A stretch of DNA of 49,085 nt, from assembly GCA_902786975.1 (NCBI GenBank), contig CADAES010000014.1:1-49085 (forward strand). Reading direction: 5' to 3'. Positions within the stretch are counted from its first letter, which is position 1; the number at the start of each line of letters is the position of its first letter. This DNA comes from an uncultured Ruminococcus sp. (GTDB lineage: Bacteria > Bacillota > Clostridia > Oscillospirales > Ruminococcaceae). Shown one piece after another: positions 29,429-32,456 of this stretch. The notes under the pieces were generated by a model. It was not told where the DNA came from, searched no databases, and was given only the letters and a program-made list of their open reading frames with translations. A program made the position numbers and the translations under genes.

Positions 29429-29457
29429 TTGACACTCAAAGGCAAATACTATATACT
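29429..29457 (+). promoter_or_regulatory. Promoter of nrdD
   Basis: TTGACA (29429-29434), 17-base spacer, TATACT (29452-29457). The leader of ~125 bases up to the nrdD ATG shows no riboswitch I recognise. Confidence 0.8.
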
Positions 29458-29493
29458 TTGAATTGTTCCGAACGAACCACAAGATATAGTGGT
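29443..29493. promoter_or_regulatory. Two NrdR-like boxes on the nrdD promoter
   Basis: Box 1 (29443-29460) has the core TACTATATACT and covers the -10 hexamer. Box 2 (29476-29493) is the palindrome ACCACAAGATATAGTGGT. Their centres are 33 bp apart, about three helical turns. Tandem ACACTATATATAGTGT-like boxes at such spacing are the known target of NrdR, the dATP/ATP-sensing repressor of ribonucleotide reductase genes. Box 1 is the weaker match. Confidence 0.65.
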
Positions 29494-29588: not shown

Positions 29589-31829
29589 ATGATCATTAAA
29601 ATAAAGAAGCGTGACGGAAGAACTGTTACTTTCAATATAGAAAAGATCGCCAATGCTATTTATAAAGCAGCTCAGTCTGTAGGCGGTTCCGATCAGGAGG
29701 AGGCTCTTATCCTTTCCGGCAAGGTCGTTGATATGCTTATGGAAAAGAACCTTACAGCTCCTACCGTTGAACAGATACAGGACTGTGTTGAAAAGGTGCT
29801 TATCAATGAGGGCCATGCCGCTACGGCTAAGGCTTATATCCTCTACAGATCCGAGAGGACCCGTGCAAGAGAGATGAATACCAGGCTGATGAAGGTCTAT
29901 GAGGACCTTACCTTCAAGTCCGCCAAGGATTCCGACCTCAAGCGTGAGAATGCCAATATCGACGGCGATACGGCTATGGGCACGATGCTCAAGTACGGTT
30001 CTGTCGGCGCTAAGGAATTCTATGAGATGTATGTCCTTGACCCGGTGCATGCCAAGGCTCACTCCGAGGGAGATATCCATATCCACGATATGGACTTTTA
30101 TACTCTTACTACGACCTGTACTCAGATAGATCTTTCAAAACTCTTTGCTAACGGATTTTCTACCGGTCACGGCTATCTGAGGACTCCTAATGATATTTCC
30201 AGCTATGCTGCGCTTGCCTGCATCGCTATCCAGTCCAATCAGAACGACCAGCATGGTGGTCAGTCACTGCCGAAATTTGATTACGATATGGCTGAAGGCG
30301 TAGCTAAGACGTTCAGGCACAGATATCGTGACAATGTTCACAGGGCTTTGAATCTGCTTGGCGGATTTGACAATTCGCAGGCTATTGCAAAGAAGCTCGT
30401 TGATCAGCTTGAGGAGAAGGGATATGTACCTACTCTTGCTAACGACAACGGCTATCAGGACGCCGAAGCTAAGCTTCTTATCCAGATCGTCGATGCTCCG
30501 ACTGTAAAGAAAATACAGAGCTTTGCCTACAAGACTTCTGTCAAGGAGACTGACAGAGCTACATATCAGGCTATGGAAGCTCTTATCCATAACCTCAATA
30601 CTATGAATTCAAGAGCAGGTGCCCAGACACCGTTTAGTTCCATTAACTACGGAACCGATACCTCTATAGAGGGAAGAATGGTCATCAAGAACGTTCTTCT
30701 TGCAGAGGAGGCAGGTCTTGGCAACGGCGAGACACCTATCTTCCCGATACATATCTTCAAGGTCAAGGAAGGTGTCAACTTCAATCCTACCGACCCTAAC
30801 TACGATCTGTTCAAGCTTGCTTGCAGGGTTTCCGCTAAGCGTCTTTTCCCGAATTTCTCGTTTATTGACGCTCCGTATAATCTTCAGTATTATAAAGAAG
30901 GCGACCCGAACACCGAAATTGCATACATGGGCTGCCGTACAAGAGTTATCTCCAACGCTCACGATCCTTCGAGAGAGATCGTTACCGGCAGAGGCAATCT
31001 TTCGTTCACATCTATCAACCTCCCTCGTCTTGGCATCAAAGCCAACAAGAATATCGGACAGTTTTTTGACAGCCTTGATGAGATGATGCAGCTTTGCATC
31101 GACCAGCTCAAGCACAGATTCAAGATCCAGTGCATGAAGAAGGTAAAGAATTACCCGTTCCTTATGGGACAGGGCGTCTGGATCGATTCCGAGAAGCTCT
31201 CTATGGACGATACTGTTGAGGAAGTGCTCAAACACGGTACTCTTTCTGTAGGCTTCATCGGTCTTGCCGAGTGCCTTGTGGCTCTTACCGGAAAGCATCA
31301 CGGCGAAGATGAGGAGTCCAGAAAGCTCGGACTTGAGATAATAACCCGTATGAGAGCAAGAATGGATGAGGAAACCAAACGTACAGGTCTTAATTTCTCG
31401 CTGCTCGCAACACCGGCAGAGGGACTCTCCGGGCGTTTCGTAAAGATGGACAAGAAGCGTTTTGGCGAGATAAAAGGTGTAACGGACAGAGAGTATTATA
31501 CCAACTCGTTCCATGTCCCTGTATATTTTAATATCAACGCATTTGAGAAGCTTAAAATAGAGGCTCCGTACCACGCTCTTACTAACGCCGGACATATCAG
31601 CTACATAGAGCTTGACGGAGATCCGCTGAATAATCTTACCGCTTTTGAAAAGGTCGTAAGGTATATGAAGGAAGTTGGCATCGGTTATGGTTCCATAAAC
31701 CATCCCGTAGACCGTGACCCTGTTTGCGGCTACACCGGCATAATCGGTGACAAGTGTCCTAAGTGCGGCAGATCTGAGGCTGAACACAATAGAGTCTGCC
31801 ACGAAAGAATCCCACGTCTCAAAGCATAG
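29589..31829 (+). CDS. nrdD: Anaerobic (class III) ribonucleotide reductase, C-terminus ending before the glycyl-radical loop (746 aa)
   Basis: Reduces ribonucleotides to deoxyribonucleotides without oxygen. ATP-cone at residues ~1-95 (IKKRDGRTVTFNIEKIANAI), the allosteric dATP/ATP site. Barrel core with MGCRTRVISNAHDP (C449, the probable thiyl-radical Cys), GRGNLSFTSINLPRLG, and NHPVDRDPVCGYTGIIGD. The C-terminal zinc region keeps C713, C723 and C726 (VCGY, CPKC); the first Cys of the usual CxxC is replaced (DRDPVC). The protein ends CHERIPRLKA, where relatives continue ERIRRITGYLVG with the radical glycine. No frame beyond the stop restores it. GGAGGA lies 8 bases before the ATG at 29589; an extension to 29529 adds no family sequence. 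Confidence 0.93.
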   Translation: MIIKIKKRDGRTVTFNIEKIANAIYKAAQSVGGSDQEEALILSGKVVDMLMEKNLTAPTVEQIQDCVEKVLINEGHAATAKAYILYRSERTRAREMNTRLMKVYEDLTFKSAKDSDLKRENANIDGDTAMGTMLKYGSVGAKEFYEMYVLDPVHAKAHSEGDIHIHDMDFYTLTTTCTQIDLSKLFANGFSTGHGYLRTPNDISSYAALACIAIQSNQNDQHGGQSLPKFDYDMAEGVAKTFRHRYRDNVHRALNLLGGFDNSQAIAKKLVDQLEEKGYVPTLANDNGYQDAEAKLLIQIVDAPTVKKIQSFAYKTSVKETDRATYQAMEALIHNLNTMNSRAGAQTPFSSINYGTDTSIEGRMVIKNVLLAEEAGLGNGETPIFPIHIFKVKEGVNFNPTDPNYDLFKLACRVSAKRLFPNFSFIDAPYNLQYYKEGDPNTEIAYMGCRTRVISNAHDPSREIVTGRGNLSFTSINLPRLGIKANKNIGQFFDSLDEMMQLCIDQLKHRFKIQCMKKVKNYPFLMGQGVWIDSEKLSMDDTVEEVLKHGTLSVGFIGLAECLVALTGKHHGEDEESRKLGLEIITRMRARMDEETKRTGLNFSLLATPAEGLSGRFVKMDKKRFGEIKGVTDREYYTNSFHVPVYFNINAFEKLKIEAPYHALTNAGHISYIELDGDPLNNLTAFEKVVRYMKEVGIGYGSINHPVDRDPVCGYTGIIGDKCPKCGRSEAEHNRVCHERIPRLKA

Positions 31830-31850
31830 TCAAGTATGCTCTCTTTTTAG

Positions 31851-31895
31851 GGGCTTCGTTTCTGCTGTCAGATGGAACGAAGCCCGCATTTTTTT
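31851..31895 (+). terminator. Terminator-like hairpin between nrdD and nrdG
   Basis: GGGCTTCGTT (31851-31860) with AACGAAGCCC (31876-31885), ten perfect pairs, followed by GCATTTTTTT. It should reduce nrdG transcription relative to nrdD unless nrdG has its own promoter, which I do not see. Confidence 0.75.
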
Positions 31896-31934: not shown

Positions 31935-32456
31935 ATGAAAATAAGGATAGCGGGTGTAGTGAACGAATCTATCGTTGACGGTCCCGGTTTCAGATATACG
32001 GTCTTTACCCAGGGCTGTCCCCATCACTGCGAGGGCTGTCACAATCCTCAGACTCACGATTTCAACGGCGGCAGGGAGACCGATACCGATGAGATATTCA
32101 ACGACATTATCAAGGACAAGCTCCTTGACGGTGTCACATTCAGCGGCGGCGACCCATTCTGTCAGTGCAAGCCTCTGACTGAGCTTGCCAGAAAGATAAG
32201 AGCCTACGACGGATTTATCACTCCGCTGAATATAATTGCTTATACAGGCTACACCTATGAATACCTTATCGCAAACGCAAACGAGGAAAACGGGTATATG
32301 GAGCTTCTGAAAGAACTTGATTATCTCGTTGACGGTCCGTTCGTGCTTGCTAAAAGAAGCCTTGAACTGAAGTTTATGGGCAGCTCCAATCAGAGATTTA
32401 TTGATGTGAAGCAGTCGCTGGAACAAGGAAAAGCTGTTGTTGTAGAACCATATTAA
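31935..32456 (+). CDS. nrdG: Anaerobic ribonucleotide reductase activating protein (173 aa)
   Basis: Radical SAM enzyme that makes the glycyl radical on NrdD using SAM and a [4Fe-4S] cluster. The cluster motif CPHHCEGC (CX3CX2C) lies at residues ~29-36 within QGCPHHCEGCHNPQTHDFNG. The SAM contact VTFSGGDPFCQ lies near 68. NIIAYTGYTYEYL and LDYLVDGPFV are typical later parts. Full length. ACGGAGGGA lies before the ATG. An intact activase argues that its partner's glycyl-radical site exists somewhere, which makes the nrdD end puzzling. Confidence 0.95.
   Translation: MKIRIAGVVNESIVDGPGFRYTVFTQGCPHHCEGCHNPQTHDFNGGRETDTDEIFNDIIKDKLLDGVTFSGGDPFCQCKPLTELARKIRAYDGFITPLNIIAYTGYTYEYLIANANEENGYMELLKELDYLVDGPFVLAKRSLELKFMGSSNQRFIDVKQSLEQGKAVVVEPY

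What the first reader, a model, noticed from the sequence alone, without database searches (positions are those of the whole stretch)
31710..31835. NrdD ends just before the glycyl-radical loop
The reading frame has the ATP-cone, the thiyl-radical Cys region (MGCRT) and the zinc region, but stops after CHERIPRLKA. As I remember the family, relatives run ERIRRITGYLVG and continue some 25-40 residues, carrying the glycine on which NrdG makes the radical. ERIPRL lines up with ERIRRI, so the protein is cut exactly where TGYLVG should begin. The two other downstream frames do not restore it, and a terminator follows at 31851. One zinc Cys is also replaced. Yet nrdG is intact and the promoter carries NrdR-like boxes. 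Options: a radical-domain protein encoded elsewhere and supplied in trans (like the YfiD spare part of pyruvate formate-lyase), a second full nrdD in the genome, a real loss of function, or a natural variant.
Basis: partly seen in the sequence, partly recalled or inferred. Interest (0 to 1): 0.72.

Follow-up and report, generated by a model that had tools for sequence, protein, structure and literature searches.

The report
Split anaerobic ribonucleotide reductase, radical elsewhere
The DNA-building-block enzyme NrdD in this gut/rumen bacterium really lacks its radical-bearing tail, and a small separate gene elsewhere in the genome encodes exactly that tail, so the enzyme most likely works as a two-part machine.

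Summary
In detail: NrdD (29589-31829, 746 aa) ends in the stub ERIPRLKA, where full-length relatives read ERIRRITGYLVG. It is no sequencing error: 21 of 21 genus sequences, own included, lack the loop. The missing piece exists. A stand-alone ~90-100 aa protein with an intact NrdD glycyl-radical loop is encoded on another contig of this genome (G000:C42, 101 aa) and in 27 of 29 genus genomes. In 66 sampled genomes of the order with both parts, NrdD is truncated in 31, and 31 of 31 carry a separate loop gene, against 11 of 35 with intact NrdD. In 13 of the 31 the split enzyme is the only reductase detected. Six viral contigs carry truncated nrdD, loop gene and nrdG together, three with nrdD and loop gene overlapping. 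The loop gene often has an NrdR-like box. Best reading: a two-component class III reductase, YfiD-like but, where NrdD is truncated, apparently obligatory. PFL is split likewise. No paper found describes it. Biochemistry is untested.

The parts
29429..29457 (+). nrdD promoter-like site TTGACA-17-TATACT
   Evidence: 11 of 12 consensus matches; overlaps the first NrdR-like half site
29446..29461 (+). NrdR-like box 1, ATACTATATACTTTGA (4 mismatches to the recalled consensus)
   Evidence: weak alone, but 31 bp from box 2, and the same or a similar pair recurs upstream of nrdD in several genus genomes
29477..29492 (+). NrdR-like box 2, CCACAAGATATAGTGG (3 mismatches)
   Evidence: 0.58 such sites expected by chance in the window, so it counts only by position and recurrence
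29589..31829 (+). nrdD: class III ribonucleotide reductase catalytic chain without its glycyl-radical loop (746 aa)
   Evidence: ends at PF13597 position 539/562; loop absent in 21/21 genus sequences, own included
30933..30935 (+). codon of Cys449, equivalent of the T4 thiyl-radical Cys290 (role recalled)
   Evidence: alignment to T4 NrdD
31803..31826 (+). C-terminal stub ERIPRLKA, where relatives read ERIRRITGYLVG
31851..31885 (+). hairpin GGGCTTCGTT/AACGAAGCCC followed by a T-run between nrdD and nrdG
   Evidence: read; not listed by the scanner because its loop is 15 nt
31935..32456 (+). nrdG: radical-SAM activase, intact (173 aa)
   Evidence: TIGR02491 150.1 bits, above cut-off 126.1

Best explanation
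The window encodes the catalytic chain and the activase (NrdG) of a two-component class III ribonucleotide reductase. The glycyl-radical loop has become a separate ~101-aa protein, encoded on contig C42 of the same genome. Proposed working: the small protein docks on the truncated NrdD and fills the place of the missing loop; NrdG makes the radical on its glycine (RITGYLVG); the radical passes to Cys449 of NrdD and reduction proceeds as usual. Shown: the truncation, the separate intact loop gene, their co-occurrence, their linkage and overlap in viral contigs, NrdR-like sites in front of many loop genes, and genomes with no other detected reductase. Inferred: physical docking, activation by NrdG, and activity. 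Probable history: a spare part next to intact NrdD came first, then the built-in loop was lost, more than once.
For: (1) A stand-alone loop gene is found in 27 of 29 genus genomes, and in 20 of the 21 whose truncated NrdD was read to its end. (2) In 66 sampled order genomes holding both parts: truncated 31/31 with a separate loop gene, intact 11/35; Fisher p 1e-9, relatedness not corrected. (3) Full NrdD plus stand-alone loop in all 3 sampled genomes of the sister lineage g18; one genus (g20) holds both states; the tree puts the 21 truncated genus sequences beside g18 with support 100 and needs 8 changes over four states. (4) Six of 80 kept viral loci with the loop gene also hold nrdD and nrdG; nrdD is truncated in 6/6, and in L281, L309 and L311 nrdD and the loop gene overlap by 1 or 11 nt. 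(5) In 13 of 31 truncated genomes no other NRDD or PF02867 reductase is found at E 0.001; 4 of the 13 have the unlinked arrangement. (6) NrdR-like box with at most 3 mismatches upstream of the loop gene in 46 of 78 loci, against 7 of 313 other ORFs with intergenic upstreams and 8 of 502 of all other ORFs; NrdR is present. (7) In 68 aligned loop proteins R59, R60, I61, T62, G63, Y64, L65, V66 and G67 are invariant, though the search patterns asked for parts of this region. (8) Active-site residues retained in the window's protein; dN/dS about 0.03-0.04.
Against: No biochemistry and no model of the complex; AlphaFold gives the close relative's small protein (L162) mean pLDDT 70.4, with the radical part at 50-64. 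In this organism a second, full NrdD exists, so the truncated one could be dispensable here. One genus genome with truncated NrdD (G001, 85% complete, 7% contaminated) shows no loop gene. Genome-wide the NrdR pattern is not enriched over its reversed control (30 against 47 sites per strand), and 32 of 78 loop loci have no site with 3 mismatches or fewer. dS is near saturation, so dN/dS is only rough. PF02867 may miss monomeric class II reductases (recalled).
Confidence: 0.87

Rival explanations
1. The truncated NrdD is a decaying or re-purposed relic (for example a nucleotide-sensing protein); dNTPs come from the full second NrdD, and the small protein is only an oxygen-damage spare part.
For: A full second NrdD is present in the own genome and a second NrdD-like radical end in 26 of 29 genus genomes; stand-alone loop genes also occur beside intact NrdD in 11 of 35 genomes.
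Against: Genus-wide conservation of the truncated chain, active-site residues kept in the window's protein, low dN/dS, 13 genomes with no other detected reductase, nrdG kept next to it in the window.
Confidence: 0.07
2. The truncated NrdD takes its radical from the second, full NrdD or from another glycyl-radical protein, not from the small protein.
For: A second NrdD and a separate PFL radical protein exist in the same genome.
Against: The second NrdD is about 33% identical with a different loop (RRTCGYIG); a matching-type loop gene exists in 31 of 31 truncated cases; 13 of these 31 genomes lack a second NrdD.
Confidence: 0.03
3. The end is an assembly or sequencing artefact, or the tail is restored by frameshifting or splicing.
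For: The window's genome is a draft (56 contigs, 90% complete).
Against: 21 of 21 genus sequences, own included, lack the loop and differ in the DNA or tail behind the stub; no GYL end in the downstream ORFs listed.
Confidence: 0.01

Closest known systems
Class III anaerobic ribonucleotide reductase NrdD/NrdG (P. copri NrdD, PDB 8p23; T4 NrdD, PDB 1h78; species names recalled or from PMC11226230)
   Same: ATP-cone, catalytic core, radical Cys, zinc region, activase; the small protein's loop aligns to 8p23 residues 707-738 around Gly711 (Gly711 from passages of PMC11226230)
   Different: The loop with the radical glycine is a separate protein, unlinked here and next door or overlapping elsewhere
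YfiD/GrcA and phage T4 Y06I, spare parts of pyruvate formate-lyase
   Same: Small autonomous radical domain that completes a truncated glycyl-radical enzyme (passages of PMC8683613)
   Different: Serves NrdD rather than PFL, matches no GrcA model, has its own predicted folded N-terminal domain, and in truncated genomes is a standing part rather than a repair part. The passage says only the two PFL spare parts had been validated and that others may exist
GrcA3 with truncated PFL (NCBIfam NF038360)
   Same: Same logic in the same genome: PFL of 691 aa without its end plus an 82-aa radical protein
   Different: Different enzyme; the pfl pair is linked. GrcA3 already has an NCBI family; no dedicated family for the NrdD loop protein appeared in Pfam, NCBIfam or PHROGs
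Phage nrdD genes split by introns, inteins or unexplained breaks
   Same: nrdD in pieces (12 of 28 passages of PMC3653736 seen)
   Different: The passages seen describe interruptions inside the gene; none of them describes a free radical-loop gene

Membership tests
Class III RNR catalytic subunit NrdD | NRDD core and ATP-cone | tested here: met
   PF13597 642.6 bits, PF03477 86.4 bits
Class III RNR catalytic subunit NrdD | Active-site Cys/Asn/Glu residues | tested here: met
   C177, C449, N470, E611 align with T4 C79, C290, N311, E446 (roles recalled)
Class III RNR catalytic subunit NrdD | Radical glycine loop in the same chain | tested here: not met
   Chain ends at profile position 539/562; so it works like a NrdD core but is not a complete NrdD
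Class III RNR catalytic subunit NrdD | Cognate activase NrdG | tested here: met
   TIGR02491 above cut-off
Class III RNR catalytic subunit NrdD | Ribonucleotide reduction by a glycyl radical | not testable with these tools
   needs anaerobic enzymology and EPR
GrcA/YfiD autonomous glycyl radical cofactor | Sequence membership (PF01228, GrcA models) | tested here: not met
   Small protein matches the NRDD tail 533-562 (29.7 bits) and no GrcA model up to E 0.1
GrcA/YfiD autonomous glycyl radical cofactor | Stand-alone gene with intact radical loop | tested here: met
   Of 160 loci scanned the motif was found in 156, in a frame under 260 aa in 155; the exception L205 has a 363-aa frame
GrcA/YfiD autonomous glycyl radical cofactor | Restores activity to a chain lacking the loop | not testable with these tools
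   inferred from co-occurrence, linkage and sole-reductase genomes
NrdR regulon | Paired 16-bp NrdR boxes 31-32 bp apart in the promoter (recalled) | tested here: inconclusive
   First box with at most 3 mismatches in 15 of 21 genus loop genes outside conjugative elements; second half weak, 5-8 mismatches, in those; 46/78 against 7/313 in a wider set

The most novel reading that the evidence does not exclude
A two-component class III ribonucleotide reductase whose radical is carried on a separate, diffusible subunit, evolved repeatedly in Clostridia and in phages from a spare part that became obligatory. The cell could then replace an oxygen-cut 10-kDa piece instead of a whole reductase. In these anaerobes two glycyl-radical enzymes, NrdD and PFL, have both been rebuilt this way.
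Probability: 0.65. Interest if true: 0.87.

Novelty: new variant of a known kind. Interest (0 to 1): 0.82.

Why it matters
All class III reductases known to me keep the radical glycine in the catalytic chain. A split version makes it testable whether a glycyl radical can be made on, or handed over from, a separate protein as a normal way of working rather than as emergency repair. It gives a candidate case for the suggestion, left open in 2021 (passages of PMC8683613), that spare parts exist for glycyl-radical enzymes other than PFL. It also shows how a repair part could become an essential subunit, with the intermediate state alive (intact NrdD plus spare part in the sister lineage). Practically, in such genomes the reductase is easily read as broken, and the ~90-aa gene is easily missed.

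Tried and rejected
Rejected: assembly error (21 of 21 genus sequences agree); decay shown by the zinc Cys (five of five full relatives checked share the Asp); restoration by another downstream ORF.

Dropped rows: dN/dS used pairs with dS under 2, 21 pairs for nrdD and 25 for the loop gene, of 66 possible pairs from 12 genomes; one loop sequence (G021) was taken with a wrong start. The tree used 82 sequences; several long branches make their places unsure. In the co-occurrence count, G090 (divergent NrdD, no loop hit) and G127 (loop hit on a contig fragment, no NrdD hit) were set aside. For 16 of the 66 genomes the state was read from frame lengths and positions, or from a loop locus, and not from a full NrdD translation; G118 was called truncated with its loop gene on another contig. 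The 147 order genomes are an even draw from a larger group, and the 80 genome loci and 80 viral loci are the best of 573 and 211.

Full report
What is there. The gene at 29589-31829 encodes a 746-aa NrdD with an ATP-cone and the reductase core. It ends ...CPKCGRSEAEHNRVCHERIPRLKA. In the same place, intact relatives read, for example...FERIRRITGYLVGTLDRFNNAKRAEERDRVKH. So the chain keeps the zinc part of the C-terminal domain and lacks only the loop with the radical glycine and the tail after it. In P. copri NrdD that domain is residues 676-739, zinc site first, then the buried loop with Gly711 (passages of PMC11226230). An intact nrdG follows at 31935-32456, after a hairpin with a T-run.

Not an accident. 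The loop is absent in 21 of 21 genus sequences read to their stop, own included, which are 83-98% identical to the window's chain and end in the stub or in short unrelated tails behind it. The expected catalytic residues are present in the window's protein, and dN/dS within the genus is about 0.03, though dS is near saturation. The aspartate in place of one zinc cysteine also occurs in five of five intact relatives checked.

The missing piece. A profile of the missing 35 residues (A2, made from four intact relatives) found strong matches in 27 of 29 genus genomes; all 35 strong matches lie in short open frames of 92-165 codons. The other matches listed had E 0.157 or worse. The two genomes without a strong match, G001 and G019, are 85% and 76% complete. 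In the window's genome the gene is on G000:C42, a 101-aa protein, MVSVNVINGELSK...VPFQRIRRITGYLVGTLDRFNNAKRAEVEDRVKHGVADNKIKQTVTRAS. About 50 residues precede the loop. For a 91%-or-closer relative family member (L162), AlphaFold gives these residues a beta-alpha-beta-beta fold (pLDDT 79-86 by blocks), while the loop part is uncertain (50-64). The small protein matches only the last positions of NrdD models in Pfam, NCBIfam and PHROGs, apart from a few weak PHROG hits of unknown function, so no dedicated family was found. In 68 aligned members the stretch R-R-I-T-G-Y-L-V-G is invariant, but the search patterns asked for parts of this region.

Distribution. In 147 genomes of the order at least 90% complete, drawn evenly from a larger group, this NrdD type (E 1e-120) occurs in 67 and a loop match in 67, 66 in common. 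I classed NrdD as truncated in 31 and intact in 35. All 31 truncated cases have a separate loop gene: 6 unlinked with the long N-terminal part, 25 of the tandem type with a shorter N-terminal part; in the 18 tandem loci measured the loop motif begins 53-163 nt after the nrdD stop. One tandem-type genome, G118, has the two on different contigs. Of the 35 intact cases 11 also have a stand-alone loop gene. Fisher p is 1e-9, without correction for relatedness. The tandem forms have a remodelled NrdD end, often EKLxELRKKYPNMP-like. A record named Subdoligranulum variabile shows the tandem arrangement too.

History. On the NrdD tree (82 sequences, tail removed) the 21 genus sequences are sister, with support 100, to three sequences of genus g18 that keep the loop and also own the stand-alone protein. 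In genus g20 one genome (G121) has intact NrdD plus the stand-alone protein, and four have truncated NrdD plus the stand-alone protein. Eight state changes are needed over four labels. The simplest reading is that the spare part came first and the built-in loop was lost afterwards, several times. Long branches make some placements unsure.

Why it must usually work. No class I/II reductase (PF02867) was found in any of 29 genus genomes. A second NrdD-like radical end is found in 26 of the 29, so the window alone does not prove function. But in 13 of the 31 truncated genomes (93-100% complete) the split NrdD is the only NRDD reductase and no PF02867 match exists: G142, G176, G162, G085 (unlinked) and G132, G071, G098, G095, G027, G040, G069, G054, G104 (tandem). 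The other 18 have a further NRDD chain, a PF02867 match, or both; four of the PF02867 matches are weak (46-49 bits). A free-living cell without any reductase is very unlikely (general knowledge). Monomeric class II enzymes could escape PF02867 (recalled).

Viral contigs. A scan of viral contigs found 211 relatives of the small protein, 80 kept. Six of those 80 loci also hold a nrdD and a nrdG within the fetched stretch. All six nrdD genes are truncated. In L281 stop and start overlap (TAATG), and in L309 and L311 the start of the loop gene lies inside the end of nrdD; in L286, L293 and L298 the loop gene lies further downstream. A separate scan with NrdD found seven viral loci; the six read (L322-L327) have the loop built in. 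The six contigs link the two pieces directly.

Regulation. Sites with at most 3 mismatches to the recalled NrdR box lie upstream of the loop gene in 46 of 78 genome loci, against 7 of 313 other ORFs with intergenic upstreams and 8 of 502 of all other ORFs in the same loci. In the own genome only six sites have at most 2 mismatches; two of them are in front of the second nrdD and of the loop gene. NrdR itself is encoded. Against this, the pattern is not enriched genome-wide over its reversed control (30 against 47 per strand), the second half-box of the loop gene is weak (5-8 mismatches), six of 21 genus loop genes outside conjugative elements lack a site with 3 mismatches or fewer, and copies on presumed conjugative elements lack it (5 of 5).

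Parallel case. PFL is split in the same genus: a frame that stops inside the Gly_radical profile and a small radical gene nearby in 27 of 29 genomes. In the own genome they are 691 aa and 82 aa; the small one is NCBI's GrcA3, so that split has a database family already.

Literature. Eight full-text searches gave no listing that describes a NrdD whose radical loop is a separate protein; six exact phrases gave no paper at all. The library lacks most subscription papers, and I judged most hits by title and start of abstract. I saw passages only of PMC3653736, PMC8683613, PMC11226230, PMC11194802, PMC12338860, PMC12288474 and PMC11528403.

Verdict. This is best described as a two-component class III ribonucleotide reductase: it works like NrdD and like YfiD-completed PFL, and is a complete member of neither family. 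Docking, activation and catalysis remain to be shown.

Noticed in passing
L074 7666-9741 and 9968-10216 (G000:C26): Pyruvate formate-lyase is split as well: 691-aa chain without the radical end plus an 82-aa GrcA3-type protein, with a 76-aa ORF of unknown kind between them; similar split in 27 of 29 genus genomes.
   Followed up: partly
L081 2801-3085, L088 9810-10094, L082 9967-10242, L086 9848-10123, L085 9416-9691: Extra copies of the stand-alone NrdD loop gene sit between a lipoprotein-like gene and genes that look like a primase and a conjugation coupling protein (names by eye), so conjugative elements seem to carry this spare part; of these copies the ones tested have no clear NrdR box.
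   Followed up: partly
L281, L286, L293, L298, L309, L311: Viral contigs with truncated nrdD lacking the ATP-cone, a stand-alone loop gene and nrdG in one neighbourhood.
   Followed up: partly
L025, L134, L136, L153, L155, L158, L160 (family f13): These truncated NrdDs end in TTIGYHGDPNEEADR-like tails that look like a decayed radical loop still holding GY; where the downstream stretch was read, the intact separate loop gene follows.
   Followed up: no
G082:C3:166646-168745 and G118:C54:2204-4306: A second NrdD-like ORF, 51-52% identical, matches the NRDD profile only at positions 6-502; its end was not examined.
   Followed up: no
L149 (G104:C7); G054, G069, G108: Two or three separate loop genes in one genome; in L149 two lie in tandem behind nrdD.
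   Followed up: no
G000:C24:3643-3658: A near-perfect NrdR-like site (1 mismatch) overlaps a promoter-like sequence with no obvious reductase gene among the ORFs listed around it.
   Followed up: no
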